A stretch of DNA of 45,142 bases from an uncultured Solirubrobacteraceae bacterium (lineage in GTDB: Bacteria; Actinomycetota; Thermoleophilia; Solirubrobacterales; Solirubrobacteraceae): the NCBI GenBank assembly GCA_902806175.1, contig CADCVQ010000164.1, forward strand, positions 1-45,142, in the 5' to 3' direction. A program made the translations under genes and the position numbers. Within the stretch, counting starts at the first letter, position 1; the number at the start of each line of letters is the position of its first letter. Under the pieces are notes generated by a model. The model did no database searches. It saw only the letters and a list, made by a program, of their open reading frames with translations, and was not told where the DNA came from. Of the stretch, positions 2,783-21,490 are shown one piece after another.

Positions 2783-3754
2783 TCAGCCGACCACGCAGCG
2801 CTCGAGCTCGCCGCGCCACTGCTCGCCCTCGAGGTTGCGGCCGATCACGACGATCCGGCTCGTGCGTGGCTCCTGCGGATCCCATGCACTTCCCGGCGCC
2901 TGCTCGACGTAGGTCTGCACGCCGTGCACGATCTGCCGGCGAGGCTCGTCCGCCAGCGCGACGATCGCCTTGATGCGAAAGACATCGGGGGCGTTGAGCA
3001 TGAGCAGCCCGCCGAGCCAGCCCTCGAAGCGCATCGGGTCAAGCTCGCCCGCAAGCTCGACGGAGAAGATCTCGACGTCGAGGTGATCGTGGTCGTGATG
3101 GTGATCGTGACCCCCGGCGCGATCGTCGTCCGCGGCGAACGCGAAGCGATCGAGCAGCAGCTCGGCGTCGAGCTCGTCGCGCGGGACGGCGACGATCTGC
3201 GCCTCGGGGTTGAGCTTGCTCGTGCGCGCACGGACCTCGTCGACGATCGCGTCATCGGCGAGGTCGATCTTGCTCACCACCACATGGGTCGCGAGCTGAA
3301 GCTGCTGGCGCGCCTCGGGGCTCTCGACGCGATCGAGCTGGTCGATCATGTGAACCGCGTCGACGACGGTGACCATCGTGTCCAGGCGCAGCACGTGCGT
3401 GATGCTGGCCAGCGCGTCGATCACGGGCCCCGGGTCCGCCAGGCCGCTCGTCTCGACGATGATCCGGTCCAGATGTCCAGCGGCGCGGTGAAGCCGCGTG
3501 ATCGCGTCCAGCAGCTCGCCCTGGCTCGTGCAGCACACGCAGCCGTCCGCGATCTCCACGACATCGTCGGCGGCGTCGCCGAGCAGCTGCCCATCGAGTC
3601 CGATCTCGCCGGCCTCGTTGACGACGACGCCGATGCGCTCTGCGCCCGCGCGTGCCCGCACGAGGCGGTTGACGAGGGAGGTCTTGCCGGCACCGAGAAA
3701 ACCGGAGATGACGGTGATCGGGATTGGGCCCTGCGGGGCGAGCTGATCGGACAC
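2783..3754 (-). CDS. CobW/COG0523 G3E-family GTPase (metal chaperone)
   Basis: The 323-residue protein has the G3E GTPase layout. The Walker A is [10 protein letters not shown] near residue 18. The metal-binding GCVCCT motif (CxCC) is near residue 72, followed by an ETSGLADP switch region. A long His/Asp-rich loop (HDHHHDHDH) lies near residue 210, before the C-terminal CobW domain. Family members deliver zinc, cobalt or other divalent metals to client proteins using GTP, and HypB, the hydrogenase nickel GTPase, is a relative. Start is GTG at 3754 with AAGGAA about 10 bases upstream. It is divergent from a PadR gene across a 129-bp gap. The His-rich loop fits zinc or nickel handling. A role in feeding the hydrogenase genes 2 kb away is possible but not shown. 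Confidence 0.85.
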
Positions 3755-5362: not shown

Positions 5363-6103
5363 CTAGGCGGGAACCGCCATGGCGGCCAGCCGATCGGCCA
5401 ACGCGACGAGCGCCTTGACGCCGGGCGAGTTCTCGTCGACGTCGATCGCCGCAAGCCCCTCCCGGTCGGCCCGGGCGATCGCTGCGTCGTCCGGCACGAC
5501 GACCATCTCGCACTCGCCGACGGCCTCGCGGATGACGGCGAGATCCTCGTCGTCACGCACCCGGTTGGCGATCACGATCACGCGGCCGCCGCGGTCGTCG
5601 GTCATCTCGACTGCGCGGCGCGCGATGTTCAGCGACTTCGCGGTCGGCTGAGCGACGACGAGGACGATGTCGGCCTGACCCTCCTGCAGGCGCATGACCG
5701 TGCCGATCCCGGCTTCGAGGTCGCCGACGATGATCTTGCCCTCGGACTCGAGCTCGTTGAGCAGCCCTTCGGGAGATACGCCGCAGCACATGCAGCCCGG
5801 GTTGGCCTGTTCGATGCGCGAGGCGACGACGAGCCGCACGCCGTCAGGCGCGTCGCGGCCGAAGCGCTCGACGAACCCCTCGGTCGAGCGCTCGTGCTCG
5901 GTCTCGCCCGTCTCCAGGCCTTGGCGCACCGCTACGAGGAGATCTGTCTCCTCGGGGCCGACACCCAGCGAAACGCCGAGCATCGGATTCGTGTCAGCGT
6001 CGAGCGCGAGCACATCGTGTCCCGCGCGCGCGAGCGCGCGAGAGATCGTGCCCGAAACGGTCGTCTTGCCGACCCCACCCTTTCCTGCGACGACGATCTT
6101 CAT
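5363..6103 (-). CDS. CooC/MinD-type ATPase with CxCC motif
   Basis: The 246-residue product is a deviant Walker A ATPase: GKGGVGKTTVSG at residues 8-19, LDADTNPMLG as the switch region, and GDLEAGIG as the second motif. GCMCCG places cysteines at 104, 106 and 107, at the site where CooC dimers bind nickel through CxC. CooC inserts nickel into CO dehydrogenase; related ATPases are nickel chaperones for other enzymes. It is the last gene of a minus-strand run reading away from hhyS1, and its ATG overlaps the previous stop (ATGA at 6100-6103). No CODH gene is visible, so the natural client is the adjacent [NiFe]-hydrogenase; that link is inferred from position. Confidence 0.82.
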   Translation of the reverse strand: MKIVVAGKGGVGKTTVSGTISRALARAGHDVLALDADTNPMLGVSLGVGPEETDLLVAVRQGLETGETEHERSTEGFVERFGRDAPDGVRLVVASRIEQANPGCMCCGVSPEGLLNELESEGKIIVGDLEAGIGTVMRLQEGQADIVLVVAQPTAKSLNIARRAVEMTDDRGGRVIVIANRVRDDEDLAVIREAVGECEMVVVPDDAAIARADREGLAAIDVDENSPGVKALVALADRLAAMAVPA

Positions 6104-6894
6104 ATGCGGTCCATGTTACGCACATCTAGTTCGTCCGCCAAACGCTCGATGGCACGCACCGCGGGCGCGTCGGGCGCGAGGTCCAGCAAGGCGACGCCCG
6201 CCCGCTCGGCGCGGCGCACCGATTCGTCGGCGGGCACCGTCGCGATCAGCGGCACGCCGAGGAACTCCTGCACGCGGTCGGCGTCGCCGTCGGCGGCGAC
6301 CTTGTTGACCACGAGCGATAGTTGCGCGTCCTCGCGCATCGCGGTCGTGATCCGCGTGATCCGGCGAGCTGTCAGCATCGACTGCCATGTCGGCTCGACG
6401 ACGAGCAGGAACTGTTGCGCGTAGGGCGCCCAGTCGAATGCCATCTGGCGCGGTCCCGCAGGCAGGTCGCCGAGGATCACCCAGTCCTCCAGCGAGGGCG
6501 CATCGTCGAGGCGGTGGATGAGCTGGTAGAAGGCGTTGTGCGACGCCCGGTTGGGCTCGAGGCCGCGTCTGTCGTGCTTGCCGATCTGCAACAGCCGCAC
6601 GCCGTCGGGGGCGTCCGTTGCGTAGCGCTGCACCGCGCGCACCGGGCCGACGCCCTTGATCAGGCGCCAGCGGCCCTTCTCGTTGCGCTCTGCGGCCGCG
6701 TTGAGCGGCACGTCGTCGGGCACTTGCGCGCCGAGGCTGATCGACAGCCCGGGCAGCGTGTCCGAATCCAGCGCAAGGACGCGGTGACCGCGCCGCGCCA
6801 GCGTCCGCGCGAGCGTCGCCGCGACGACGGACTTCCCCACGCCGCCCTTGCCGACGACTGCGAGACGCATGCCGCCGGCGGGGCGTGTGGTCAT
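6100..6894 (-). CDS. CooC/MinD-type ATPase without CxC motif
   Basis: About 264 residues from the ATG at 6894 (an alternative ATG at 6870 lies just before RLAVVGKGGVGK). It has a deviant Walker A (GKGGVGKSVVAA), the LDSDTLPGLSISLG switch and ILGDLPAGPR as the later motif. It is clearly paralogous to the genes on either side, but the CxC nickel site is replaced by IGKHDRRG. It is probably a partner or regulatory paralogue that cannot bind metal in the CooC way. It sits 16 bp after a PadR gene and overlaps the next ATPase by 4 bp, so all are likely co-transcribed. No convincing Shine-Dalgarno sequence decides the start. Confidence 0.78.
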   Translation of the reverse strand: MTTRPAGGMRLAVVGKGGVGKSVVAATLARTLARRGHRVLALDSDTLPGLSISLGAQVPDDVPLNAAAERNEKGRWRLIKGVGPVRAVQRYATDAPDGVRLLQIGKHDRRGLEPNRASHNAFYQLIHRLDDAPSLEDWVILGDLPAGPRQMAFDWAPYAQQFLLVVEPTWQSMLTARRITRITTAMREDAQLSLVVNKVAADGDADRVQEFLGVPLIATVPADESVRRAERAGVALLDLAPDAPAVRAIERLADELDVRNMDRI

Positions 6895-6910
6895 CGTCGA
6901 GGCAGGTGCG

Positions 6911-7351
6911 TCACTCGGTGTGAGACCGCGCACGCTTGCCACGGTCGAGGGACACGAACTCGGAGTAGCGGCTGAGGAAGACGCCAAGCACGTCGTCGGT
7001 CGCCATCAGCGCCTTGGCGGCGAGATGCAGCTCCTCCATGCCGGTGCGCGTGAGCTCGTACATGCGCCGGTCGGGACCGGTGGTGGACTTCTCCCAGACC
7101 GAGCGCACGAGCTCGTCGCTCTCGAGCGTGCGCAGCGCCCGGTACAGACGCCCCGGATCGTCCCGACTGAAGCCGAGCGGGCGCAGCCGCTCGAGCAGGT
7201 CGTAACCGTGCGCGGGATGCTCGCGCAGCAGCAGCAACAGGCACGGCCTGAGGAAGTTCTTCGGCAGAACCTGCGCGGGTGTCAGATCAGTGGGAATGGC
7301 CTGATCCAACTCGGTCGTGAAGGCACTCGGCCGCAGCCTCGGGCGAATCAT
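6911..7351 (-). CDS. PadR-like transcriptional regulator
   Basis: A winged-helix PadR-type domain is visible from LTPAQVLPKNFLRP onward: LLLLLREHPAHGYDLLERL, then a segment for the wing with RRMYELTRTGMEEL, and a C-terminal helical region (~146 residues from the ATG at 7351). The start is uncertain: GTG at 7372, ATG at 7351 and TTG at 7309 are in frame, and the first two give a 65-86 bp overlap with the upstream gene. It lies inside the ATPase run divergent from hhyS1, so a role in controlling the hydrogenase genes is plausible but not shown. Confidence 0.78.
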   Translation of the reverse strand: MIRPRLRPSAFTTELDQAIPTDLTPAQVLPKNFLRPCLLLLLREHPAHGYDLLERLRPLGFSRDDPGRLYRALRTLESDELVRSVWEKSTTGPDRRMYELTRTGMEELHLAAKALMATDDVLGVFLSRYSEFVSLDRGKRARSHTE

Positions 7352-7652
7352 GACACCAGCAGTCGGCGTCACACTCGCCGTGGGTTGGACGGGTCAGGTC
7401 GGCCATCTCGTCGGCGAACGTCCGCTTGCCGTTCTCCATGCCGCCGGCGCTCAGGACGTAGCGCTCGCCGCGCCCCTCCAGCAGGCCGTCTTCGATGAAC
7501 CGGTCGAGGTATGCAGTCAGGACCGTGTCGGGCACCGCCAGAAAGCGGCTGAGCTCGACAGCCGTGGGCTCCGTCGAGATGCCCTCGCTGTGCATCCAGT
7601 ACATCGCCTGGAGCACCTCGTCGCGGACGCGAAGGACTTCAAGCTCGTCCAT
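7287..7652 (-). CDS. Small winged-helix-like protein with Cys/His-rich C-terminal tail
   Basis: The 121-residue product begins with a helical region (VRDEVLQAMYWMHSEG) followed by a helix-turn-helix-like stretch, TAVELSRFLAVPDTVLTAYLDRFIEDGLLE, and a wing-like GRGERYVLSAGG. The last 33 residues hold GECDADCWCHD, then C-L-H and a terminal GSGHSH. That is four Cys and several His, a likely metal-binding tail. I do not recognise a named family. The layout suggests a metal- or redox-responsive DNA-binding protein. Its ATG overlaps the preceding ATPase stop by 14 bp (7639-7652), so it belongs to the maturation run next to the hydrogenase. Confidence 0.6.
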   Translation of the reverse strand: MDELEVLRVRDEVLQAMYWMHSEGISTEPTAVELSRFLAVPDTVLTAYLDRFIEDGLLEGRGERYVLSAGGMENGKRTFADEMADLTRPTHGECDADCWCHDSPEAAAECLHDRVGSGHSH

Positions 7653-8409
7653 GGACGTTCGCCCCCCAGGTCATGGCGAGGCGGTGGATCGGCGCGATCG
7701 CCAGCGAGTCGGGGTTGTAGTCCAGCGGCGCCACGCCGGCGCGCTCGGCGAGCGCGAAGGTCTCGTCGAAGGGGACGATCGCAGCGATCTCGAGATCGTG
7801 GTTGGCGGCGAAGCTCTCCACGGCCTCCTGCTCGCGCTCGTCCTTGACCTTGTTGGCCACCAGGGCGACGCGCTCGAGGCCGAGATCGTTTGCCAGCGCC
7901 GCCATCCGGCGGCCGGTCTCGAGCGACTTGAAGTACGGCTCGACGACGGCGAGCATGACGTCGGCATAGCTTGCGGTGCCACGCGACAGATGCTCCGGGG
8001 AGGCCTCCGTGTCGAGCAGGCAGACGTCGCGATCCTCATCGGATGCAGCCTCGATGATCCGGCGGACCGTCGCATGCATGCTGCACAGGCAGCCGGTGTC
8101 GGCGTGCTGAGGATGCGCCATGACGAGCAGCTCGACGCCGTCCGGCCCGGTGACCGAATGCGACGCCTTGATGTCCTCGAGCGATTCCGTGAGCATCGGA
8201 CCGGCCTCGGTGCGCCGCAGGAGGTTCGACGGCAGCACGGGCATGTCGCTCATCCGCTCGGCGGCGATGCCGAGCGTGAGAGCGAGATTCGGGTTCGAGT
8301 CGCCGTCGATCGCCAGGACGTTGTAGCCGTCGCGCGCGAGCAACCGCGCCATCGTCCCGGAGATCGAGGTCTTTCCCGAGCCACCCTTACCAGCGATAGC
8401 GAGCTTCAT
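7639..8409 (-). CDS. CooC-type nickel ATPase with CxC motif
   Basis: The 256-residue protein from the ATG at 8409 has a deviant Walker A with Ser (GKGGSGKTSISG), the switch AIDGDSNPNLALTLG, and GCLCSMH with C107 and C109 at the CooC nickel-binding position. LLDTEASPEHLSRG matches the later active-site region of CooC. This start was chosen because it immediately precedes the KLAIAGKGG strand; the longer frame upstream is promoter DNA. It is the first gene of the minus-strand run, divergent from hhyS1 across a 169-bp gap. Family knowledge says CooC inserts nickel into CO dehydrogenase; here a hydrogenase client is inferred from synteny. Confidence 0.83.
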   Translation of the reverse strand: MKLAIAGKGGSGKTSISGTMARLLARDGYNVLAIDGDSNPNLALTLGIAAERMSDMPVLPSNLLRRTEAGPMLTESLEDIKASHSVTGPDGVELLVMAHPQHADTGCLCSMHATVRRIIEAASDEDRDVCLLDTEASPEHLSRGTASYADVMLAVVEPYFKSLETGRRMAALANDLGLERVALVANKVKDEREQEAVESFAANHDLEIAAIVPFDETFALAERAGVAPLDYNPDSLAIAPIHRLAMTWGANVHGRA

Positions 8410-8443
8410 GGGGCCACTGTACCCAACCGGGTGGGTGGCTGCC

Positions 8444-8466
8444 ACACATAGGACGCCAGTTCGCCC
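8444..8466 (-). promoter_or_regulatory. Upstream motif shared with the hhyS2 promoter region
   Basis: Read on the minus strand, GGGCGAACTG (8466-8457) is followed after 1 bp by CGTCCTATGTGT (8455-8444), about 35 bp before the ATPase start codon. Both words recur, in the same order and orientation relative to the gene, upstream of hhyS2 at 12250-12285 with a 14-bp gap. A small dyad, GTGGC-T-GCCAC, lies beside it at 8435-8445. Shared regulation of the two operons is inferred. Confidence 0.5.
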
Positions 8467-8510
8467 AGAAGGAGTGCCGGAAGCGGCGCGAGCGCCCGCG
8501 CGGTCGGTTC

Positions 8511-8539
8511 TTGCAGTGTGTGGGCCGCACCCATATGCT
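8511..8539 (+). promoter_or_regulatory. Sigma-70-like promoter of hhyS1
   Basis: TTGCAG at 8511-8516 and TATGCT at 8534-8539 are separated by exactly 17 bp, a good housekeeping-type -35/-10 pair. The start codon lies 39 bp downstream of the -10, and AAGGGAG precedes it at a spacing of 6 bases. Confidence 0.6.
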
Positions 8540-8578
8540 CCGCGCACCTAGGACTGAGAGCGACGAAGGGAGCGGGGC

Positions 8579-9871
8579 ATGAGCTACGAGGTGGGTGCGT
8601 TCGGGGGTTTCGTGGGCGCTACGAGGCGCGACGACGGCAAGCTCGTCCACGTCTTCTGGCTGTCCGCGATGGCCTGTGACGGGTGCTCCGTGGTGGCGCT
8701 CGGCGCCAACCAGCCGCGCATCGAGGAGCTCACGCTGGGCGAGATCCCCGGGCTTCCTCAGATCGTGCTGCATCACCCGATGCTCTCCGAGGACGCCGGC
8801 GCCGGCTTCATGCAGGCCTATCGCGCGGCCGCCGACGGGACGCTGAACGCGCCCTACATCCTCATCATGGAGGGCTCGATCCCCGACGACCAGAGCCTCG
8901 GCGGCCCCGGCTATTACGCGGCCATGGGCACCGGCTCGGACTGGCCGCAGTCCAAGGGCAACGTCGCGGCTCCCGATCAGCCCGTCAAGGTCAGCGACTG
9001 GGTGTGGGCGCTTGCGCCGGGCGCGGAAGTGTGCATCGCGATGGGGACCTGCGCGACGTGGGGCGGGATCCCGGCCGCGGCCGGGAACATCACAGGCTCC
9101 ATGGGCCTGACGGACTACCTCGGCGCGGACTACCGCTCCAAGCGCGGCCTGCCCGTGGTCAACGTCCCCGGGTGCCCGCCCGTCGGCGACAACTTCACGG
9201 AGGTCCTCAAGGAGCTGCTCTTCTACTTCGAGGGCGGCCGCGGGCTGCCGGCGTTCGACGAGCTCGGGCGCGCGGTCTGGCAGTTCGGCGAGACCGTGCA
9301 CCGCCATTGCATGAAGGCCGGCTACTACGAGGAGGGCGTCTTCGCTCACGAACCGGGCGACAACCAGTGCCTGGTCGAGATCGGCTGCTGGGGTCCTGTC
9401 GTGCAGTGCAACATCACCGAGCGCGGCGCGCAGGACCACACGGGCGGCTGCATGATCGCCGGAGGCGCGTGCATCGGGTGCACGATGCCCGGGTTCCCCG
9501 ACAAGTTCAGCCCGTTCTACAAGGCGCCTCCGGGATCGGCGATCTCCGGCACGACGTCGCGGATCACGGGCGGTGCGATCCGCCGCCTGCGGCGTGCGTC
9601 GATGGCCAACGCCAACACCGAGCCGCTGTGGGACAAGGCGCATGAGATCCCGACCGCCTGGGGCCGCGCCGCGGACGTCACCAACCCGGTCCGCAAGGTC
9701 AACGCGTTCTTCTACAAGAAGCTCCAGTACAGCGGCTCGGTCAACCACGCCAAGCGCGCCAAGCAGCAGCCGCTGCCGCTGAGCCGCGACATCCTGCGTC
9801 AGAAGGGCATCGACCTCGAAGCGAGCGTGCCCGTCCTGCAAGAGCATCTGATCACGCGCGAGGAGCTGTAG
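8579..9871 (+). CDS. hhyS: [NiFe]-hydrogenase small subunit, actinobacterial high-affinity type, copy 1
   Basis: The 430-residue protein matches the small subunit of group 1h (formerly group 5) uptake hydrogenases, which oxidise atmospheric hydrogen in actinobacteria. The iron-sulfur ligand motifs are present: MACDGCSV (C33, C36), GTCATWGG, VPGCPPVG for the proximal cluster, and HRHC, NQC, GCWGPVVQC, GGCM and CIGCTMPGFP for the other clusters. The Asp beside the first cysteines fits the group, where a proximal cluster with an Asp ligand has been reported. There is no twin-arginine signal, so it is not exported by its own signal. It has its own promoter, and the hhyL1 start follows its stop directly. 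It lacks the N-terminal insertion of copy 2 but is nearly identical over the C-terminal half. Confidence 0.93.
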   Translation: MSYEVGAFGGFVGATRRDDGKLVHVFWLSAMACDGCSVVALGANQPRIEELTLGEIPGLPQIVLHHPMLSEDAGAGFMQAYRAAADGTLNAPYILIMEGSIPDDQSLGGPGYYAAMGTGSDWPQSKGNVAAPDQPVKVSDWVWALAPGAEVCIAMGTCATWGGIPAAAGNITGSMGLTDYLGADYRSKRGLPVVNVPGCPPVGDNFTEVLKELLFYFEGGRGLPAFDELGRAVWQFGETVHRHCMKAGYYEEGVFAHEPGDNQCLVEIGCWGPVVQCNITERGAQDHTGGCMIAGGACIGCTMPGFPDKFSPFYKAPPGSAISGTTSRITGGAIRRLRRASMANANTEPLWDKAHEIPTAWGRAADVTNPVRKVNAFFYKKLQYSGSVNHAKRAKQQPLPLSRDILRQKGIDLEASVPVLQEHLITREEL

Positions 9872-11563
9872 ATGAGCACCCAGACGTTGGCGGCGCCCGG
9901 CACGCATTCCGGCGCGGGCGCCCGCAACCTCCGCTTCAACCCCGTCACGCGGGTGTCCGGCGGGCTGCACCTGCACGCTGCGGCCGACTTCGGCGGCACC
10001 CGGACGGTCAGTGACGCCGTCGCGATGGCGACGGCGTTCCGTGGCTACGAGGTGATCCTCAACGGGCGCGACGCGCGCGACGCGGTGTTCATCTCCAGCC
10101 GGGCCTGCGGCGTGTGCGGCAACGCCCACTCGACCGCCGGGGCGCTCGCGGTCGAGATGGCGTGCGGGGTCTCACCGCCGCCGCAGGGCGTCGTGGCGCG
10201 CAACTTCCTCAGCGCCGCCGAATGCATGATCGACCACCCCAGCCACCTGTTCCTGCGCGCCGGCCCGGACTACTCCGAGCCCGTCGTGCGCGAGACGAGC
10301 CCCGAGCTGTGGTCGCGCGCCGAGTCGACGCCCGCCGCGGGGGCGGCCGTGCACGGGTTCGCGCGCGTGTCGGACATCATGACGGCGCTGACGCGCAACA
10401 GCGGCTTTCTATACCGCGAGGCACTTCACATGACGCGCATAGCGCGCGTGGCATACGTCGTGATCGGCGGCAAGTATCCGCATCCGCAGACGATTACGCC
10501 GGGTGGCCTCAGCTCGACGGTCGACACGACCGACTACAACATCACGCTGTTGCGCATCGTGAAGTACCTGGACTACAGCCGCAAGACGGTCGCCGTCTGG
10601 GACGACATCGCTGACTTCTTCTACCAGGCCGACCAGCGCTACGGCCAGGTCGGCGCCGGGCCGATGAACTTCATCGACCTGGGCCTGTGGGACGACCCGC
10701 ACACGGTCGGGGGCCCGTCGGGCTTTGGCGAGACGCGTTGGTCGTCGCCGGGCGCCATCGTCAACGGTGCGCTGCAGACCACGTCGGTGCGGGAGATCGA
10801 CGCCGGCGTCGAGGAGTTCGTCGAGCACTCCTTCTTCGAGAACTGGAGCGGTGGCGGATACTCCCACGACGCCGGCGGCAACCCGCTGTCGTCGCGCCAC
10901 CCGTCCAACAAGCAGACGATTGCGCAGCCGGGCAACCCAAACCCCGACGGCAAGTACTCCTGGTCGACGGCGGCGCGCTGGCAGGGACACCCGATGGAGA
11001 CGGGCGCCCAGGCGCGGATGTGGGCGACGGCGCTGGCCCGGCGGCCGCACGGCAGCTTCGTCGAGTCGACGGGGCGCAGCGTGAGGATGAACATGCCGTC
11101 GGGCGAGATGCCGGCCAACGTGCTCGAGTGGCAGGCACCGCAGCGGTGGAATGCCTTCGAGCGCAACCGCGCCCGTGCCTACGCGCTTGCGCAGGCGACG
11201 CTGGCGGCGTACGAGACGGTCGTGATCGGCCTCGACCTCGCGCGCCGGGGCGGTTCCAACGCGAGGATCTTCAACCCCTACAAGATTCCGAAGGACGGCG
11301 TCTCGGGGGCGGGGTACTGGGGAGGCGCACGCGGCTTCGTCAGCCATCACATGCAGATCGACGGTCGCGTGATCGAGAACTACCAGATCGTCGGGCCCTC
11401 GACGTTCTCGGGTTCGCCACGCGATGCGGCGGGCACGCCCGGCCCGTGCGAGGCGGCGGTGATGGCCACGCCGCTCGTGAGCTCTGACCCGACCGAGCAT
11501 GGCATCGACGTCCTGCGTGCGGTTCGCAGCTTCGATCTGTGCATGTACTGCGCCGCGCAGTGA
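9872..11563 (+). CDS. hhyL: [NiFe]-hydrogenase large subunit, copy 1, ending at the mature C-terminus
   Basis: The 563-residue protein is a group 1h-like large subunit. The first active-site motif is intact (SSRACGVCGNAH, C79 and C82). The second is SFDLCMYCAAQ (C557, C560) and the stop codon follows at once. Canonical large subunits read DPCxxCxxH followed by a peptide that a specific protease removes after the His. Here Pro is Leu, the final His is Gln, and there is no extension, so the gene encodes the mature end directly. All four nickel cysteines remain. Known large subunits without an extension include hydrogen-sensing and some group 4 enzymes. The N-terminus is also about 35 residues shorter than in copy 2. 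The role may be catalytic, sensory or structural. A hairpin follows. Confidence 0.9.
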   Translation: MSTQTLAAPGTHSGAGARNLRFNPVTRVSGGLHLHAAADFGGTRTVSDAVAMATAFRGYEVILNGRDARDAVFISSRACGVCGNAHSTAGALAVEMACGVSPPPQGVVARNFLSAAECMIDHPSHLFLRAGPDYSEPVVRETSPELWSRAESTPAAGAAVHGFARVSDIMTALTRNSGFLYREALHMTRIARVAYVVIGGKYPHPQTITPGGLSSTVDTTDYNITLLRIVKYLDYSRKTVAVWDDIADFFYQADQRYGQVGAGPMNFIDLGLWDDPHTVGGPSGFGETRWSSPGAIVNGALQTTSVREIDAGVEEFVEHSFFENWSGGGYSHDAGGNPLSSRHPSNKQTIAQPGNPNPDGKYSWSTAARWQGHPMETGAQARMWATALARRPHGSFVESTGRSVRMNMPSGEMPANVLEWQAPQRWNAFERNRARAYALAQATLAAYETVVIGLDLARRGGSNARIFNPYKIPKDGVSGAGYWGGARGFVSHHMQIDGRVIENYQIVGPSTFSGSPRDAAGTPGPCEAAVMATPLVSSDPTEHGIDVLRAVRSFDLCMYCAAQ

Positions 11564-11609: not shown

Positions 11610-12194
11610 TCAGGCCGCGGGTGCTTGCGTGCTCTGGTCCGCCAGCGCCTCTTCGCAGGTGCGGACGAGGTATCCGTAGACCCACGCCCGCTTCAGGTCG
11701 GCCGGGTCGCCGGCGACCGGATGCTCTCGGTCACGCAGAAGCTCCTCGATCGCGCGCCGCGCGAGATAATGACGCACATGCCCGCCAGGACCGGGGACCT
11801 GCCAGGTCATCGCGGCCGGGTCGTCGGGGCTCGGCTTGCCGACCGGCTCCGCCAGCGCCAGGTCGCCGCACAGGGCGGCGACCGCGTCGTCCTCGGTCTC
11901 CGCGCGCGCCCGGTACGCCGCCACCTTCTCGGGCACCCAGCCGGCGGGACGGCGCGCCGGCTCGAACAGTTCGACCTCGACGAGGCGCGCGAGGTATCCG
12001 CTGACGCGCAGAGCCCGCTCCAGCGCGTGTTCGTCGTCGACGATCAGCATGTGGTCGGCCTGCAGCGACGGTGGTGTCTGGACCAGTTCCCGGCTTGCGC
12101 GACGCTCCTCGACCTGCGCATGCACGGACTCGACCAGCGTCTGCACCAGCACGTTGGTGTTGACCGGCAAGAATCCGCCCTGATCAGTCGACAT
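11610..12194 (-). CDS. Protein of unknown function between the two hydrogenase pairs
   Basis: I do not recognise this 194-residue protein. It is soluble, acidic and mostly helical by eye, with no signal peptide, no transmembrane segment and no Cys cluster. Notable stretches are a VNTNVLVQTLVESVHAQVEE helix at the N-terminus, SGYLARLVEVELFEP in the middle, and RAWVYGYLVRTCEEAL near the C-terminus. The ATG at 12194 is preceded by AGGAGG at a spacing of 10. It is divergent from hhyS2 and convergent with hhyL1, that is, enclosed by hydrogenase genes. This suggests a dedicated accessory or regulatory role; nothing in its sequence proves one. Confidence 0.75.
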   Translation of the reverse strand: MSTDQGGFLPVNTNVLVQTLVESVHAQVEERRASRELVQTPPSLQADHMLIVDDEHALERALRVSGYLARLVEVELFEPARRPAGWVPEKVAAYRARAETEDDAVAALCGDLALAEPVGKPSPDDPAAMTWQVPGPGGHVRHYLARRAIEELLRDREHPVAGDPADLKRAWVYGYLVRTCEEALADQSTQAPAA

Positions 12195-12332: not shown

Positions 12333-13673
12333 ATGGCCTACGACACGGGGTACAAGCAGAAGCTGCAGACGGTGCCGCATGCTGGCGGCGTCTTCGGTGC
12401 CGACGTCGATCCGGGGATCGGTGGGCTCGGCGGCAGCCCCGACGGACCTTTGAACATCGTCCACGTCTTCTGGATCGCGGGGATGAGCTGCGACGGATGC
12501 TCGATCGCGGCCAGCGGCGCGACGAACCCCTCGGTCGAGGACCTGCTCCTGGGCAGGATCCCGAACCTACCGAAGGTGGTTCTGCATCACCCGGTGCTCT
12601 CTCCGGGCGCCGGCACGGAGTTCATCCGGCCGTTCAAGGCGGCTGTCAACGGCACGCTCGGCGCACCGTACGTCGTGGTGCTCGAGGGCTCGGTACCCGA
12701 CGATCAGGCCTTCCCGACCGAGTTCGGCTACTTCTCGGCGATGGGCGCCGGCGGGTTCGATCCCGAGTCGGAGACCGACCAGCCCAACCGCGTGACGGAC
12801 TGGCTGTGGCAGATGGCCCCGGGCGCGGCCGCGTACGTCGCGATCGGCACCTGCGCGACGTGGGGCGGGATTCCGGCCGCGGCCGGAAACGTCACCGGCT
12901 CAATGAGCCTCACCGACTTCCTGGGCAAGGACTACCGCTCCGCCCTCGGCGTCCCGGTCGTCAACGTGCCCGGTTGCGCGCCGGTCGGCGACAACTTCAC
13001 CGAGACGGTCGCGGCTGTGCTGATGTTCCTCCAGAACCTGGCGCCCCTGCCGCAGTTCGACGAGCTCGGCCGGCCCGCGTGGCTGTTCGGCGAGACCGTG
13101 CACCGCCATTGCCCGAAGGCGGGCTATTACGAGGAGGGCGTCTTCGCCGAGGAGTACGGCGACAACGAGTGCCTCGTCGAGGTCGGCTGCTGGGGTCCGG
13201 TCGTGCAGTGCAACATCACCGAGCGCGGCGCGATCAACCACATGGGCGGCTGCATGGTCGCCGGCGGGCCCTGCATCGGCTGCACGATGCCGGGCTTCCC
13301 CGACAAGTTCAGCCCGTTCCTCAAGGCGCCTCCGGGCTCCGCGATCTCCGGCACGACGTCGCGGATCACCGGCGGGGCGATCCGCCGGCTGCGGCGGATG
13401 TCGATGGCCAACGGCAATTCCGAGCCGCTGTGGGACAACGCGGGCGAGGTGCCGTCGGCATGGGGGCGCGCGTCGGGCACGCAGAACCCGCTCAAGAAGG
13501 TCAACACGTTCTTCTACAAGAAGCTGCAGTACAGCGGCTCGGTCAACCACGCCAAGCGCAACAAGAACCAGCCGCTGCCGCAGAGCCGCGACATCTTGCG
13601 CCAGAAGGGCATCGACCTCAACGCGAGCGTGCCTGTCCTGCAAGAACATTTGGTCACCCGGGAGGAGCTGTAG
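12333..13673 (+). CDS. hhyS: [NiFe]-hydrogenase small subunit, actinobacterial high-affinity type, copy 2
   Basis: The 446-residue small subunit is closely related to copy 1. Its iron-sulfur ligands are all present: MSCDGCSI (C53, C56), GTCATWGG, VPGCAPVG, HRHC, NEC, GCWGPVVQC and CIGCTMPGFP. It carries an extra N-terminal Gly-rich stretch (about residues 15-38) that copy 1 lacks. It transfers electrons from the active site of HhyL2 to an acceptor and should lie on the cytoplasmic side, having no Tat signal. It opens the long operon that continues through the maturation genes. GAGAGGAG lies about 11 bases before the ATG, and hhyL2 starts directly after its stop. Confidence 0.94.
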   Translation: MAYDTGYKQKLQTVPHAGGVFGADVDPGIGGLGGSPDGPLNIVHVFWIAGMSCDGCSIAASGATNPSVEDLLLGRIPNLPKVVLHHPVLSPGAGTEFIRPFKAAVNGTLGAPYVVVLEGSVPDDQAFPTEFGYFSAMGAGGFDPESETDQPNRVTDWLWQMAPGAAAYVAIGTCATWGGIPAAAGNVTGSMSLTDFLGKDYRSALGVPVVNVPGCAPVGDNFTETVAAVLMFLQNLAPLPQFDELGRPAWLFGETVHRHCPKAGYYEEGVFAEEYGDNECLVEVGCWGPVVQCNITERGAINHMGGCMVAGGPCIGCTMPGFPDKFSPFLKAPPGSAISGTTSRITGGAIRRLRRMSMANGNSEPLWDNAGEVPSAWGRASGTQNPLKKVNTFFYKKLQYSGSVNHAKRNKNQPLPQSRDILRQKGIDLNASVPVLQEHLVTREEL

Positions 13674-15587
13674 ATGTGCTTTAAGAACCTGCCGATCGAG
13701 TTCGACGCGGCGGGCAACGCGACGCTGAAGGACGGCGTCGCGAACCCCTACTCGTACACCGAGACGCCCGCGCCGACGCCAATCGAAGACGATCCGGAGC
13801 GGATGCGCGAGCTGTTCGCGCGCAACGGTGCGGTGCGCCGCGTGGACTTCGACCCGGTCACGCGCGTCGCAGGCGCGCTCGCGTTCCATACGGTCGTCGA
13901 CCTCGAGAACCGCCAGGTCATGGAGACCGCTTCCATGGCCACGCTGTTCCGGGGCTACGAGATCATCCTGAAGGGTCGCGACCCGCGCGACGCGATCAAC
14001 ATCTCAAGCCGCGCCTGCGGCGTCTGCGGCGGCGTGCACGCCACCGCTTCGGCGCTGGCGGTCGAGATGGCGTTCGGGATCCATCCGCCCCCGCTGGGGA
14101 TCGTGGCCCGCAACCTGCTGCTCAGCACCGAGTACCTCTACGACCACCCGATCCACCTGTCGCTGCTTGCCGGCCCGGACTTCTCCGAGCCTGCGGTCCG
14201 CGAGACGAACCCCGAGATCTGGGAGCGCGCGACGAGCACGCGCACGCAGGGCCGCGAGGAACACGGCTATGAGTTCATGTCCGAACTGATGACCGATCTC
14301 ACGCCGCTGACGGGCAAGCTCTACCTCGAGGGCCTGTACTACACGCGCCTCGCACGCGAGGCGTACGTCCTGATCGGCGGCAAGTATCCGCACCCGCATA
14401 CGGTCGTGCCGGGCGGAGTCGCCACGACGATCGACGCGTCCGATCTCAACGAGATCATGCTGCGCGTCGTCAAGTACTTCGACTACGGCCGCAAGACCGC
14501 AGCGATCTGGGACGATCTCGCCGCGTTCTTCTACGAGGTCAACCCGAAGTACAAGGAGATCGGCACGCGCCCGAAGAGCATGCTCGAGCCCGGCCAATGG
14601 GACGATCCGTACGCCTACGACGCCACGTACGAGAACGCCGACATCTGGGCGCGCCGGCGCTGGGCGCCCCCCGGCGTGGTCGTCGACGGCGAGCTCGTCA
14701 CGACGAGCGTGAAGATGCTCAACGCCGGCGTCGAGGAGTTCGTCGAGCACGCCTTCTACGAGGAGTGGACGGAGGGCGACCAGCCGCGCTTCCCGACCGA
14801 CCCCTCGGGCAACCCGCTGTCGCCGTGGCACCCGTGGAACAAGGAGACGATCCCCAAGCCGACGGCGACCAGCTGGAAGGAGAAGTACTCCTGGTCGACG
14901 GCGCCGCGCTGGGACCGCATGGCGATGGAGACGGGCGCCTACGCGCGCATCTGGGCTGCGGCGCAGACCGGCGGCGCGGACTTCCGCGACTCTCCGTTCA
15001 TCAACTCGACGGGGCACAGCCTGCAGATCACCCTGCCCAAGGCATCGATGCCCAACAAGCCGATCGAGTGGATGATTCCGGAGACGTGGGGCGCGTTCGA
15101 GCGCAACCGTGGCCGCGCGTACTCCATCCTCTACACGGCCGCGATCGCGTATGACAACCTGCTGATCGCGTACGACCTGATCCGCAAGGGCGGGCCGGAC
15201 GCGAAGATGTCCACGCCCTACAAGGTCCCCAAGGACCACCGGCTGGGCGTCGGGCTCTGGAGCGCTGGGCGCGGCTACCTCACGCACCATCTCGAGATGG
15301 ACAACGGGGTCATCGAGAACTACCAGATCCTCACGCCCTCGACGTGGATGGCCTCGCCGAAGGATCCCTTCGGCAACCCGGGCCCCTACGAGGAGGCCGT
15401 GATGGCGACGCCGCTGCTGGAGAACTACGAGAAGCCGGAGGATTTCAAGGGCATCGACGTCCTGCGCGCGATCCGCAGCTTCGACCCGTGCATGCCGTGC
15501 ACGACGCACCTGCACATGGACGATCGGACCATCACGCGGGAGATCATCAGCTGTGCCTGCGGATCTGACGGTCCGCATGAGCATTAG
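13674..15587 (+). CDS. hhyL: [NiFe]-hydrogenase large subunit, actinobacterial high-affinity type, copy 2
   Basis: The 637-residue large subunit holds the Ni-Fe site. Motif 1 is SSRACGVCGGVH (C115, C118) and motif 2 is SFDPCMPCTTH (C606, C609, H612). A 25-residue C-terminal extension then follows, rich in charged residues, with SCACGSDGPHEH at the end. In the family this tail is cut after the His once nickel is inserted. Near the N-terminus DPVTRVAGAL stands where other groups have an R-[IV]-E-G-H box; I recall the same change in the actinobacterial-type enzyme of Ralstonia. Full-length for group 1h. This is the probable working hydrogen-oxidising enzyme, scavenging trace H2 to feed respiration. 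Confidence 0.94.
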   Translation: MCFKNLPIEFDAAGNATLKDGVANPYSYTETPAPTPIEDDPERMRELFARNGAVRRVDFDPVTRVAGALAFHTVVDLENRQVMETASMATLFRGYEIILKGRDPRDAINISSRACGVCGGVHATASALAVEMAFGIHPPPLGIVARNLLLSTEYLYDHPIHLSLLAGPDFSEPAVRETNPEIWERATSTRTQGREEHGYEFMSELMTDLTPLTGKLYLEGLYYTRLAREAYVLIGGKYPHPHTVVPGGVATTIDASDLNEIMLRVVKYFDYGRKTAAIWDDLAAFFYEVNPKYKEIGTRPKSMLEPGQWDDPYAYDATYENADIWARRRWAPPGVVVDGELVTTSVKMLNAGVEEFVEHAFYEEWTEGDQPRFPTDPSGNPLSPWHPWNKETIPKPTATSWKEKYSWSTAPRWDRMAMETGAYARIWAAAQTGGADFRDSPFINSTGHSLQITLPKASMPNKPIEWMIPETWGAFERNRGRAYSILYTAAIAYDNLLIAYDLIRKGGPDAKMSTPYKVPKDHRLGVGLWSAGRGYLTHHLEMDNGVIENYQILTPSTWMASPKDPFGNPGPYEEAVMATPLLENYEKPEDFKGIDVLRAIRSFDPCMPCTTHLHMDDRTITREIISCACGSDGPHEH

Positions 15588-15602: not shown

Positions 15603-16076
15603 GTGCGGGTGCTTGTCTGCGGCGTCGGCTATCGCTTCCTTCGCGATAGCGCCGTCGGTCTGTGGTTGACCGACACGCTGGCGCCGCAGGCCAGCAACGG
15701 CATCGAGTTCGAGGACCTCGGCTATCACCCCGTCGGGTTCACGCAGAACCTGGACGAGCGCCCCGACTACGACCGCATCGTGTTCGTCGGGGCGGTCGAG
15801 CGGGGGCGCGATCCGGGGACGGTCACGGCGTATCGCTACGACCATGTGCTGCCGGACGTCCAAGAGATCCAGGACCGTGTGGGTGATTCGGTTACCGGAT
15901 CGATCTCGCTGGATAACCTTGTGATCGTGTCCGAAGCTTTCAAGGCGCTGCCCGACGACGTATGGATCGTGGAGATCGAGCCGGCGGACGAAACATGGGG
16001 CGAGGGCTTCAGCCCCGAGGTTGAGGCCAAGCTGCCAGAGATCACGGAGACGGTATGGAGTTTGACCAAGCTGTAG
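15603..16076 (+). CDS. Hydrogenase maturation protease homologue lacking metal ligands (pseudo-protease)
   Basis: The 157-residue protein has the size and strand order of HyaD/HybD/HycI maturation proteases: a VLVCGVGYRFLRDSAVG loop at the start, then YDRIVFVGAVERGRDPGTV. The three nickel-reading ligands of the family are missing. The D/E of the DDG/DEG loop is Ser16, the Asp of IDAVERG is Gly63, and the region that carries the His in the intact homologue downstream (DVHLANP) reads SISLDNL. The Asn of GxGN is Tyr10. It is therefore unlikely to cleave, but may still bind a large subunit as a chaperone. GTG start 15 bp after hhyL2; its end overlaps the next gene by 22 bp. Confidence 0.72.
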   Translation: MRVLVCGVGYRFLRDSAVGLWLTDTLAPQASNGIEFEDLGYHPVGFTQNLDERPDYDRIVFVGAVERGRDPGTVTAYRYDHVLPDVQEIQDRVGDSVTGSISLDNLVIVSEAFKALPDDVWIVEIEPADETWGEGFSPEVEAKLPEITETVWSLTKL

Positions 16077-16927: not shown

Positions 16928-17415
16928 GCACCACGATCCCCTCCGAGGCCGTTGAAGTTCGCTCCGAGCGCGTCCTGGTCGCGGGAGTGGGCAATACGCT
17001 GCGCGGCGACGACGGTTTCGGGCCTGCCGTGACCGAGTTGCTGACGAACCTTCCCGAAGGAGCCGAGGTCATCGAGACGGGCACCGGCGGCATTGCGCTG
17101 CTGCAGGAGCTCATGGTCGGCTGCTCGGGCCTGATCCTGATCGACGCCGTCGAACGCGGCGCCGAGCCGGGAACCGTCTTCTACATCGAGCCCGAAGTCG
17201 AGAAGGGCGAGCACGTGCCCGACGTCCACCTCGCCAACCCGGCGCGCGTCCTGTCGATGGCCAAGACGATGAACGTGCTTCCGGACCGCGTGGTGATCAT
17301 CGGCTGCCAACCATTGGATACTGAGGAACTCTGCCAGGGTCTCTCGCCGCCCGTTCAGCGTGCGCTGGCCATCGCAGTCCACAAGATCGAGGAGACGGTA
17401 CATGCCTGGCTTTAA
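16924..17415 (+). CDS. Hydrogenase maturation protease
   Basis: The 163-residue protein is an intact HyaD/HycI-type endopeptidase. It shows VAGVGNTLRGDDGFG with D30, ILIDAVERGAEPGTV with D74, and DVHLANP with H102, the three residues that bind nickel and check active-site loading before cleavage, then VIIGCQP. Its substrate should be the HhyL2 tail after H612, because HhyL1 has none. The GTG start overlaps the preceding stop (GTGA) and the end overlaps the MoxR gene by 14 bp. A later start before VRSERVLVAG is possible. Confidence 0.9.
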   Translation: MSTTIPSEAVEVRSERVLVAGVGNTLRGDDGFGPAVTELLTNLPEGAEVIETGTGGIALLQELMVGCSGLILIDAVERGAEPGTVFYIEPEVEKGEHVPDVHLANPARVLSMAKTMNVLPDRVVIIGCQPLDTEELCQGLSPPVQRALAIAVHKIEETVHAWL

Positions 17416-18289
17416 CTCGATACAGGAGATGCGCAACGCGCTGACCAACCAGCGCTATCTCATGGACGAGGGGCTCGCGACGGTCGTGTTCCTGGCGCTG
17501 CGGCTGCGCAAGCCGCTGCTCGTCGAAGGCGAGCCGGGGGTTGGAAAGACGGAACTTGCCAAGGCGCTCGCGGCGGCGACCGGCACGCCGCTGATCCGGC
17601 TGCAGTGCTACGAGGGCATCGACGTCCACCAGGCGCTCTACGACTGGGACTACCCCCGTCAGCTCCTGCAGCTGCGCGCCGGCACGTCGACGCAGCTGTA
17701 CTCCGAGGAGTTCCTGCTGCGCCGGCCGCTGCTGGAGGCGATCACGCGGCCCGGCTCGGTGCTCCTGATCGACGAGCTCGACCGCGCGGACGACGAGTTC
17801 GAGGCGTTCCTGCTCGAGTTCCTGTCGGACTTCCAGGTCACGATCCCGGAGGTCGGCGTCATCAAGGCCACCGAGCCGCCGATCGTGATCATCACGTCCA
17901 ACCGCACGCGCGATCTGCACGAGGCGCTCAAGCGCCGCTGCCTGTATCACTGGATCGACCATCCGGACCTTCAGCGCGAGGTCGCGATCGCGCGCGCGCG
18001 CCTGCCGCACGTCGGCCAGTACCTCGCCGACCAGGTGTGCGCCTTCGTCCAGGACCTGCGCTGGCTGGACCTCTTCCGCTCGCCGGGAGTCGGCGAAACG
18101 CTCGACTGGGTCCAGGCATTCCACACGCTCGGCCACAACGAGCTCGACTCGCAGACGGTGAGCAGCACGCTGGGCACGCTGCTGAAGGAGCGCGACGACC
18201 TCGAGCGCATCCGCGGCGGAGATCTCGACGCGGCGATCGCGCGTTCCTCGCAGCGGGCGGCGCAGCTGCGCCAGGGCAACTACCAATGA
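17402..18289 (+). CDS. MoxR-family AAA+ ATPase (CoxD-like)
   Basis: The 295-residue ATPase has Walker A GEPGVGKT at residues 43-50, Walker B VLLIDELDRAD near 120, sensor 1 IVIITSNRTRDLHEALKRRC with the arginine finger region, and a C-terminal lid helix. MoxR ATPases work with VWA proteins as chaperones that insert or modify cofactors. CoxD of carboxydotrophic bacteria helps build the copper-sulfur-molybdenum site of CO dehydrogenase. Here it is paired with a CoxE-like VWA gene (4-bp ATGA overlap) inside a hydrogenase operon, so action on the hydrogenase or its electron carrier is inferred. Confidence 0.88.
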   Translation: MPGFNSIQEMRNALTNQRYLMDEGLATVVFLALRLRKPLLVEGEPGVGKTELAKALAAATGTPLIRLQCYEGIDVHQALYDWDYPRQLLQLRAGTSTQLYSEEFLLRRPLLEAITRPGSVLLIDELDRADDEFEAFLLEFLSDFQVTIPEVGVIKATEPPIVIITSNRTRDLHEALKRRCLYHWIDHPDLQREVAIARARLPHVGQYLADQVCAFVQDLRWLDLFRSPGVGETLDWVQAFHTLGHNELDSQTVSSTLGTLLKERDDLERIRGGDLDAAIARSSQRAAQLRQGNYQ

Positions 18290-19563
18290 GGCTGCGCGAG
18301 CCCCAGCGGACGCCCGACCAGGCCATCATGGCGGCCGCCGTGGGGCTGGCGCGCGCGCTGCGCGAGTTCGGTCTGTCGGCGAGCGTCGACGCCGAGCACA
18401 CGTTCCTGCGGGCACTGGTCGAGATCGACGTGCGCGACCGCACGCAGATGTACTGGGCGGGGCAGGCGGCGTTCGTGCACTCACCGAACCAGATGCCGAT
18501 CTGGGACGCGATCTTCGAGCGCTTCTGGGACGGGCGCCCGCTGATCCTGCAGGAGGGCGGCTCGCAGCACGGCGAGAGCGACGCCCGCATGCAGGGCTCC
18601 CACCACGGCGGCGAGGCGCTGCCGCAGTTCGGCGGCGAGGCGAATGAGAAGGTTGCGCTGGACGGCGATCGCCAGCGCGGCGACCAGGACATCCCGACCG
18701 CCGAGGGCGAGGATGGCGCCAGCAACCAGGAGCACGGGATTCTCGCCGCCTGGAGCGACCAGGAGATCCTCAGCGGGCGCGAGAACCTCCAGTACGAGGA
18801 GGACGAGCTGCTGGCCCTGCGCCTGCTCGCGCACGAGATCAAGCGCAACGCGCCGGCGCGCCGCTCCCGTCGTTCGCGCCCGTCGGCAGGCGGGCACCGC
18901 TTCGACGTGCGCGGGACCGTGCGCGAGTCCCTCGGGACGGACGGCGAGGCGTTTCACCTGGGATTCAGCGCGCCGACGCTTCGACCGCGGCGGCTGTTGT
19001 TCATCTGCGACGTGTCAGGCTCCATGGAGCGCTACTCGCGCGTGCTGCTCGCGACGCTGAAGGCGGCGGTCGGCGCGGCCCGGCGCGCCGAGGCGTTCGT
19101 GTTCGCCACGCGGCTGACGCGCCTGACGAAGACGCTCGACGGCCGCGACCTCGAGCAGGCGCTCGACAAGGCGCGCGCGGCGGTGCCGGACTGGTCCGGC
19201 GGCACGCGGATCGGTCACGCGCTCGGAGACTTCAACACCACGTACGGCCGGCGCGGATTCGCGCGGGGTGCGATCGTGCTCGTCGTCAGCGACGGATGGG
19301 ACCGTGGCGACCCGAAGATCCTCGAGGCGGAGGTGCGCCGGCTGCAGTTGCAGTCGCGGCGCCTGGTGTGGATCAACCCGCGGCCGATGAGCGTCGACCA
19401 GCAGCCGCTCGCGATCGGGATGCGGGCGGCGCTGCCGTACATCGACGATTTCGTGCCGGGGCACGACCCGCGCGCGGTCGCCGGGCTCGCGCACCTGATC
19501 GGCGGTCTGGGCAGCGATCGGCCGGTGCGCAAGATCGTTCCCACGGCCGCCGGCCAGGGCTGA
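18286..19563 (+). CDS. VWA domain protein, CoxE-like
   Basis: The 425-residue protein is the partner of the MoxR ATPase. The N-terminal third is helical, followed by a Gly/Gln/Asp-rich low-complexity stretch (about residues 88-150). The C-terminal half is a von Willebrand A domain with the MIDAS motif DVSGSM near residue 242, WSGGTRIG for the second metal loop and VVSDGWDRGDP for the third. In the CoxE family the VWA protein is thought to link the ATPase to its client. No signal peptide, so cytoplasmic. A GC-rich hairpin follows the stop, separating it from the small membrane-protein genes. Confidence 0.87.
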   Translation: MRLREPQRTPDQAIMAAAVGLARALREFGLSASVDAEHTFLRALVEIDVRDRTQMYWAGQAAFVHSPNQMPIWDAIFERFWDGRPLILQEGGSQHGESDARMQGSHHGGEALPQFGGEANEKVALDGDRQRGDQDIPTAEGEDGASNQEHGILAAWSDQEILSGRENLQYEEDELLALRLLAHEIKRNAPARRSRRSRPSAGGHRFDVRGTVRESLGTDGEAFHLGFSAPTLRPRRLLFICDVSGSMERYSRVLLATLKAAVGAARRAEAFVFATRLTRLTKTLDGRDLEQALDKARAAVPDWSGGTRIGHALGDFNTTYGRRGFARGAIVLVVSDGWDRGDPKILEAEVRRLQLQSRRLVWINPRPMSVDQQPLAIGMRAALPYIDDFVPGHDPRAVAGLAHLIGGLGSDRPVRKIVPTAAGQG

Positions 19564-19710: not shown

Positions 19711-19992
19711 ATGCGCAACATATTGCTGGGGGAGCCCGTGGTCGCCTCTGTTAGCGGTTGGTGGCTCGGGATCAGTATCGGACTAGCCATCGTGACCCTC
19801 GTCGTCATCCTCGTGATGACGATCATCACGCTGGCTCACAAGATCGCCGGTCAGGCCACAGCTGGATCGCGGGGCATGCTGGACGCATATGCCAACACCA
19901 ATGCGGTCTGGAAGCTGCGGGACGTCAACCGGTCTGCGTCGGGTATCTGGCGGGCTGCGGAGTCCGCTCGTAAGGTTCTGGAGGGGAGATAG
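19711..19992 (+). CDS. Small single-helix membrane protein 1 of 5
   Basis: The 93-residue protein has one N-terminal transmembrane helix (about residues 17-42, WWLGISIGLAIVTLVVILVM) and a hydrophilic, likely helical tail (LDAYANTNAVWKLRDVNRSA). It has no Cys or His cluster and I recognise no family. The ATG may be leaderless; an internal GTG at 19738 after GGGGGAG would leave only the helix and tail. The stop is directly followed by the next gene. It opens a run of five similar-sized proteins inside the hydrogenase island. Confidence 0.72.
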   Translation: MRNILLGEPVVASVSGWWLGISIGLAIVTLVVILVMTIITLAHKIAGQATAGSRGMLDAYANTNAVWKLRDVNRSASGIWRAAESARKVLEGR

Positions 19993-20253
19993 ATGTCGCC
20001 TGATGAAGTTTCGCTGTGGAAGGCGGTGCTGGTCGCGGGGGCCATCCTGGTGATGGCGGTCATCGGCCTGCTGAGCTTGCTGCTGATCGTGGTCCGGACG
20101 ATCGATCGCAACGTCGTGCAGCTGTGGACGGACACCAAGCTGCTCGCCACCAACACGACCGGGCTGTACCAGATTGCCGGCACGGCATCGGTCGTTCGCG
20201 CGCTGCGCGAGGAACTCCTGCGCCACGAGAAGCTGCTGCGGGGAGGCACCTGA
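19993..20253 (+). CDS. Small single-helix membrane protein 2 of 5
   Basis: The 86-residue protein has one N-terminal transmembrane helix (about residues 10-37, VLVAGAILVMAVIGLLSLLL) and a tail that ends in a charged helix (SVVRALREELLRHEKLL) with heptad-like spacing. GGAGGGGAG precedes the ATG. The stop overlaps the next start by one base (TGATG), which indicates coupled translation. Same architecture as its neighbours; function unknown. Confidence 0.75.
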   Translation: MSPDEVSLWKAVLVAGAILVMAVIGLLSLLLIVVRTIDRNVVQLWTDTKLLATNTTGLYQIAGTASVVRALREELLRHEKLLRGGT

Positions 20254-20767: not shown

Positions 20768-20780
20768 GTAAGGAGGAGAC

Positions 20781-21211: not shown

Positions 21212-21490
21212 ATGTGTCTAGCGATTCCCGGGCAGATCGTCGAATGGGTCGACGAGGAGTTGAACATCGCCAAGGCGCAGGTCGCCAACGTGCGGCGCAA
21301 CGTCAACGTCGGCCTGCTGGCCGAGACGGAGGACGCGGTCACCATCGGCGACTGGGTGCTCATCCACGTCGGCTTTGCGATGTCGAAGATCGACGAGGCC
21401 GAGGCGCAGTCGACGAGGGAGTTCCTCGAGCAGCTGGGCGATCCGTACCGCGACGAGCTCGAGGAGCTCAAGGGCAGCACCATCGAGTAA
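21212..21490 (+). CDS. hypC: Hydrogenase maturation factor HypC
   Basis: The 92-residue protein begins MCLAIPGQIV, with the essential Cys2 of HypC/HupF, and has the later DWVLIHVGFAMSKID segment with the conserved His. HypC works with HypD to carry the Fe(CN)2CO unit to the large subunit. GGAGGG lies 7 bases before the ATG. HypA, B, D, E and F are not in this window and must be encoded elsewhere if the enzymes are matured normally. Confidence 0.95.
   Translation: MCLAIPGQIVEWVDEELNIAKAQVANVRRNVNVGLLAETEDAVTIGDWVLIHVGFAMSKIDEAEAQSTREFLEQLGDPYRDELEELKGSTIE

What the first reader, a model, noticed from the sequence alone, without database searches (positions are those of the whole stretch)
11500..11563. 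Hydrogenase large subunit 1 is encoded with its mature C-terminus
HhyL1 ends DLCMYCAAQ and stops, at the exact length where DPCxxCxxH is normally cleaved; the Pro and the final His are replaced. All four nickel cysteines are kept, whereas HhyL2 in the next operon has the full motif and a 25-residue tail. A protease-independent large subunit beside a protease-dependent paralogue suggests a different role (hydrogen sensor, scaffold or altered catalysis) or a different maturation route.
Basis: partly seen in the sequence, partly recalled or inferred. Interest (0 to 1): 0.8.

Follow-up and report, generated by a model that had tools for sequence, protein, structure and literature searches.

The report
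Naturally tailless hydrogenase large-subunit paralogue
Soil actinobacteria carry, beside a normal hydrogen-oxidising enzyme, a second copy whose core subunit is made already trimmed instead of being cut by a protease, a state so far listed only for hydrogen sensors and a few other hydrogenase groups; it arose once, is inherited as a clade, and changes fast at its metal site.

Summary
HhyL1 (9872-11563, 563 aa) ends SFDLCMYCAAQ-stop; HhyL2 (13674-15587) ends SFDPCMPCTTH plus 25 residues. No tail is readable in any frame behind the L1 stop. It is neither a sequencing error nor a lone decayed copy: ten intact relatives in two families of one order stop at exactly this position, while the other large subunits extracted have tails of 18-30 residues. 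The tailless sequences form one clade (100/99), sister to the L2 type and far from the tailless sensor HoxC: two separate tail losses. P-to-L (3 of 10) and H-to-Q (2 of 10) are not clade traits. The clade evolves about twice as fast as L2 and breaks 5-8 of 77 columns invariant in tailed enzymes, but nine of ten keep all four cysteines. The tenth, G130, has lost two, and no L2 was found in it. S1 keeps all cluster ligands and has been gene-converted with S2. No kinase lies beside S1-L1, so a sensor is unlikely. Best reading: a protease-independent, probably cofactor-bearing, altered second unit that depends on S2-L2. The pair resembles group 1m rather than 1h. Tail loss and clade are shown; function is inferred.

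The parts
8579..9871 (+). small subunit S1, partner of L1; its stop codon directly abuts the L1 start
   Evidence: Pfam PF01058 and PF14720; same cysteines as S2 at the cluster sites; C-terminal half gene-converted with S2 in relatives
9872..11563 (+). tailless large subunit L1, 563 aa, ends DLCMYCAAQ
   Evidence: PF00374 3e-65; predicted fold pLDDT 84.8, TM 0.91 to HofG 5aa5; tailless clade 100/99
11528..11560 (+). C-terminal motif SFDLCMYCAAQ followed directly by TGA at 11561-11563
11610..12194 (-). 194-aa all-helical protein of unknown family, conserved between L1 and S2, and also beside S2-L2 where L1 is absent
   Evidence: no Pfam or NCBIfam hit; orthologues at 8 other loci; predicted fold without PDB match
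12333..13673 (+). small subunit S2
13674..15587 (+). tailed large subunit L2, 637 aa, full DPCMPCTTH motif and 25-residue tail
15603..16076 (+). hydrogenase maturation protease paralogue lacking the three metal-ligand positions
   Evidence: TIGR00072 8e-17; degenerate in the window and six orthologues; also present in G014, which lacks L1
16924..17415 (+). apparently competent HybD/HycI-type maturation protease, presumably for L2
   Evidence: TIGR00072 2e-33; GDDG, IDA and DVH motifs intact
7639..8409 (-). CooC-type ATPase with CxC (GCLC), divergent from S1
   Evidence: best PDB match CooC 3kje 6.6e-30; conserved near the hydrogenases
5363..6103 (-). second CooC-type ATPase
   Evidence: best PDB match CooC 7.5e-14
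21212..21490 (+). HypC
   Evidence: PF01455 3e-24, TIGR00074 7e-22

Best explanation
L1 is the product of an old duplication of the S-L pair of an actinobacterial high-affinity type [NiFe]-hydrogenase (group 1m-like). One copy lost its C-terminal extension once, before the two families carrying it split. Its large subunit is therefore translated in the mature length and skips the endopeptidase checkpoint, as in HoxC-type sensors and in the engineered tailless HoxG. It still most likely receives a NiFe cofactor through HypC/D/E and the nickel-delivery proteins, pairs with S1, and works as a second, altered H2-reactive unit whose electrons leave by the same route as those of S2-L2. Shown: tail loss, single origin, retention of cofactor cysteines in 9 of 10, intact S1 ligands, faster change at conserved sites, gene conversion between S1 and S2. 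Inferred: cofactor loading, H2 reactivity, shared electron acceptor, dependence on S2-L2.
For: Single tailless clade, 100/99, sister to the L2 clade. Tail length bimodal, 0 against 18-30. C79 and C560, the Mg-ligand Glu E60 and the active-site Arg R487 are invariant in all ten; C82, C557 and D555 in nine of ten (roles of the residues from established hydrogenase structures). Frames of about 560 codons intact in ten genomes; dN/dS about 0.26-0.28 in close pairs, so still under purifying selection. All S1 Fe-S ligands kept; S1/S2 C-terminal halves homogenised, with a 188-nt exact run in G015, while L1 is not overwritten by L2. L2 occurs without L1 (G014 lacks S1-L1 cleanly at the same locus; also G115, G118, G234, G368), but L1 with all four cysteines and no L2 is seen only in fragmentary genomes 64-68% complete. 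An engineered tailless group 1d HoxG loads the cofactor and is active (PMC7294309).
Against: No expression, metal or activity data. L1 breaks 5-8 of 77 columns invariant in tailed enzymes (leave-one-out median 0 for tailed ones), including D121S in two members and two cysteines in G130, so the active site is under weaker or different constraint. Engineered tailless E. coli Hyd-2 lacks cofactor (cited in PMC7294309), so lack of a tail does not guarantee loading. Root-to-tip distance is 2.2 times that of L2 (0.81 against 0.37). G130 may lack L2 only because its assembly is incomplete (95%).
Confidence: 0.5

Rival explanations
1. L1 is a pseudo-enzyme: S1-L1 is a structural or electron-relay companion (for example half of a mixed S1L1-S2L2 tetramer) whose NiFe site is no longer needed.
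For: 5-8 of 77 otherwise invariant columns broken in every member; G130 keeps a 562-codon frame with C82S, C557S and D555N; branch dN/dS there about 0.41, still below 1 (derived); group 1m enzymes have been modelled as S-L tetramers on 5aa5 (PMC9561532).
Against: Nine of ten keep all four cysteines, and R487 and E60 are kept in all ten, hard to explain without a cofactor. G130 is also the one well-covered genome in which no L2 was found, so its cysteine losses may be decay.
Confidence: 0.25
2. S1-L1 is an H2 sensor like HoxBC or HupUV, with the tailless large subunit as its hallmark.
For: HoxC and a Paracoccus relative end DPCMVCTVH-stop, the same architecture.
Against: L1 is not in the sensor clade; the tree needs two tail losses. 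No histidine kinase in the conserved neighbourhood, nor beside the stand-alone S1-L1 of G208. S1 has the same C-terminal extension and cluster cysteines as S2.
Confidence: 0.12
3. L1 is a decaying duplicate with no present function.
For: Fast evolution; lost cysteines in G130; frame breaks in the G131 copy; G014 lacks the pair.
Against: Open frames of about 560 codons in ten genomes across two families, dN/dS well below 1, cysteines kept in nine. The G131 contigs also break S1, S2, HypD and HypE, so those breaks look like sequencing indels.
Confidence: 0.1
4. Sequencing or assembly error hides a normal tail.
For: None found.
Against: The same stop position in ten independent genomes, no tail in other frames.
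Confidence: 0.01

Closest known systems
Group 1m [NiFe]-hydrogenase HhmSL (PMC9561532)
   Same: Actinobacteriota; adjacent S and L genes; HybD peptidase, Fe-S assembly protein and CooC-type ATPase in the cluster; HofG 5aa5 as best structural model.
   Different: Described with one S-L pair and a HybD peptidase; no tailless paralogue turned up in the passages of the main text read here.
Group 1h HofKG / Hhy
   Same: Best solved relative (5aa5, TM 0.91), general architecture.
   Different: HofG and Streptomyces 1h form a separate clade with tails; the window genome has its own 1h enzyme on contig C147.
Regulatory hydrogenase HoxBC / HupUV (group 2b)
   Same: Large subunit encoded without C-terminal extension, ending at the cleavage position.
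   Different: Different clade, independent tail loss, no kinase partner found here, small subunit like that of the tailed neighbour.
Engineered HoxG-proc (tailless group 1d MBH, PMC7294309)
   Same: A group 1 large subunit without its tail.
   Different: Man-made; L1 would be a natural group 1 case.
HoxV / HupK maturation scaffolds
   Same: Large-subunit relatives with altered C-terminal cysteines (HoxV DPCVPY).
   Different: About 383 aa and not in an S-L gene pair; L1 is full length and paired with S1.

Membership tests
[NiFe]-hydrogenase large subunit (PF00374) | profile match over the curated cut-off and hydrogenase fold | tested here: met
   221 bits against 25.8; TM 0.91 to 5aa5
[NiFe]-hydrogenase large subunit (PF00374) | four cofactor cysteines in two CxxC motifs | tested here: met
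   C79, C82, C557, C560 in the window; lost in part in G130 only
[NiFe]-hydrogenase large subunit (PF00374) | C-terminal DPCxxCxxH/R motif | tested here: not met
   DLCMYCAAQ in the window; eight of the ten clade members keep H and seven keep P
Group 1 enzymes with endopeptidase-cleaved C-terminal tail | C-terminal extension beyond the motif | tested here: not met
   0 residues in all ten intact L1 sequences
Group 1h (Hhy/HofG) | placement in the clade with HofG and Streptomyces 1h | tested here: not met
   1h clade 100/100 excludes L1 and L2
Group 1m (Hhm) | gene cluster with adjacent S-L, HybD, Fe-S assembly protein, CooC-type ATPase | tested here: met
   description in PMC9561532
Group 1m (Hhm) | placement with published HhmL reference sequences | not testable with these tools
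H2-sensing hydrogenase (group 2b/2d) | tailless large subunit | tested here: met
H2-sensing hydrogenase (group 2b/2d) | placement with HoxC/HupV | tested here: not met
H2-sensing hydrogenase (group 2b/2d) | adjacent sensory partner (kinase) | tested here: not met
   none in the conserved neighbourhood of S1-L1 nor beside the stand-alone G208 pair; a kinase-like gene about 16 kb away in the window was not checked for conservation
H2-sensing hydrogenase (group 2b/2d) | signalling activity | not testable with these tools
   needs experiment

The most novel reading that the evidence does not exclude
A natural, protease-independent group 1 [NiFe]-hydrogenase unit has evolved into an accessory module that acts only together with its tailed paralogue (mixed S1L1-S2L2 complex), trading catalytic stringency for another role such as electron relay, H2 capture or protection, with nickel delivered by CooC-type ATPases rather than HypA/HypB in some hosts.
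Probability: 0.25. Interest if true: 0.75.

Novelty: new variant of a known kind. Interest (0 to 1): 0.55.

Why it matters
Naturally tailless large subunits have been listed for groups 2b, 2d, 4c, 4e and 4g only (PMC7294309; a shorter list in PMC12134894). A clade within group 1, lying beside a tailed sister in the same cells, is a natural experiment on the open question of what the C-terminal tail is for: same host and neighbouring genes, with and without the checkpoint. It also bears on how actinobacterial soil bacteria build high-affinity hydrogenases, and warns that large-subunit counts may overestimate catalytic capacity.

Tried and rejected
Sequencing error (rejected). Sensor clade (rejected on the tree). 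P-to-L and H-to-Q as part of the tail-loss mechanism (rejected: seven tailless members keep the Pro, eight keep the His). The degenerate protease as an L1-specific partner (rejected: present in G014, which lacks L1). G131 frame breaks as pseudogenisation (doubtful: neighbouring genes are broken too). The 194-aa gene: no family and no fold match. The one pattern scan of genome contigs gave only tailed or incomplete relatives; class, phylum and sister-family searches gave no tailless member outside the order. Literature searches for tailless group 1 or group 1h enzymes found none.

Full report
Observation. L1 (9872-11563) is a 563-residue hydrogenase large subunit that ends SFDLCMYCAAQ and stops; L2 (13674-15587) ends SFDPCMPCTTH with a 25-residue tail. 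Both match PF00374, and L1 models on the solved actinobacterial-type enzyme HofG (TM 0.91). The four cofactor cysteines of L1 are intact.

Is it real and conserved? Searches of whole genomes in the same family, order, class and phylum gave ten intact L1 sequences, the window included, in two families of one order, and an eleventh copy with frame breaks (G131). In the ten intact ones the stop follows the H/Q position directly; no frame behind the stop reads like a tail. All other large subunits extracted carry 18-30 residues beyond the motif. On a 67-row maximum-likelihood tree built without the tails, the tailless sequences are one clade (100/99) and sister to the tailed L2 type. With HoxC, HoxG and HofG added, the tailless sensors lie far away, so the tail was lost at least twice independently. 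Within the limits of these samples (1,587 genomes counted as searched, some of them more than once), no tailless member lies outside the order.

What is local and what is general. Proline-to-leucine (DLC) is shared by three species of the window's genus; the final Gln occurs only in the window and in G208, which are separate on the tree. These changes came after the tail was lost.

Constraint. Of 77 columns invariant in 56 tailed enzymes, each L1 breaks 5-8, against a leave-one-out median of 0 for tailed ones. Root-to-tip distance from the common ancestor is 0.81 against 0.37 for L2. Still, frames stay open, dN/dS in close pairs is about 0.26-0.28 (third positions are GC-rich and saturate in wider pairs, so ratios there are unreliable), and nine of ten keep all four cysteines. 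The exception, G130, has C82S, C557S and D555N in an open 562-codon frame; it is also the only well-covered genome with L1 but no detectable L2. Its branch dN/dS works out at about 0.41 from the pair values.

Neighbourhood. The order CooC-type ATPase, S1-L1, 194-aa gene, S2-L2, degenerate protease, NifU-Rieske protein, protease, MoxR, CoxE-type VWA, small membrane proteins and HypC is largely conserved within the genus; in other genera S1-L1 lies beside hypC, hypD and hypE instead and the ATPases lie further off. G014 has the same locus without S1-L1, so the pair is a removable module. In G208 S1-L1 stands alone, on another contig than S2-L2, without a kinase. S1 keeps the same cysteines as S2 at the cluster sites; its C-terminal half is homogenised with S2 (188-nt exact run in G015), while L1 is not overwritten by the nearby L2. 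I read this as selection keeping L1 distinct while the electron-exit side stays shared; this is inference.

Naming. The pair does not belong to the 1h clade; this genome's 1h-type enzyme is on contig C147. Gene content fits group 1m as described in PMC9561532: S and L adjacent, HybD, Fe-S assembly protein, CooC-type ATPase, Actinobacteriota. Reference sequences could not be checked.

Mechanism. Precedents show that large subunits without a tail can be loaded by the normal machinery (group 2b sensors; engineered HoxG) but also that removal can give cofactor-free enzyme (Hyd-2) (PMC7294309, PMC12134894). With the cysteines, R487 and E60 largely kept, I favour a cofactor-bearing, protease-independent unit with an altered site that serves together with S2-L2 (0.5), over a pseudo-enzyme companion (0.25), a sensor (0.12) and decay (0.1). 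Nothing here measures metal or activity.

Verdict. It is a new variant of a known kind.

Noticed in passing
window 15603-16076: A maturation-protease paralogue lacking all three metal-ligand positions is conserved (window and six other genomes) next to the intact protease: a possible protease-like chaperone for L2.
   Followed up: partly
G207 and G208: Two genomes 93-96% complete have no HypA and no HypB match over the cut-off (only a 70-residue HypB-like piece in G207), yet carry S1-L1 and S2-L2, HypC/D/E (G207) and CooC-type ATPases: possible HypAB-independent nickel delivery to a [NiFe]-hydrogenase.
   Followed up: partly
window 5363-8547 (-): Three P-loop ATPases, at least two closest to CooC in the PDB, divergent from S1; a CobW-type GTPase with a His-rich stretch lies at 2783-3754.
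   Followed up: partly
window 11610-12194 (-): Conserved 194-aa helical protein with an invariant VPGPGGHVRH stretch and no known family, beside S2 at nearly every such locus read.
   Followed up: partly
window 7287-7652 (-): Small helix-turn-helix-like protein with a Cys/His-rich C-terminus (CDADCWCHDSPEAAAECLHDRVGSGHSH), no Pfam match; possible metal-responsive regulator.
   Followed up: no
window 17360-19563 and 19711-21140: MoxR and CoxE-type VWA genes and five short membrane proteins follow the hydrogenase genes, recalling CO-dehydrogenase maturation genes and the HylTM1-5 of group 1l.
   Followed up: no
L039 2546-2968 and 5258-6946 (G130): The last ~100 codons of the altered L1 are duplicated about 2.3 kb downstream, both copies with the lost cysteine.
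   Followed up: partly
G015:C3, S1 and S2 (L036): 188-nt exact match between S1 and S2: recent gene conversion in the cluster-binding region.
   Followed up: yes
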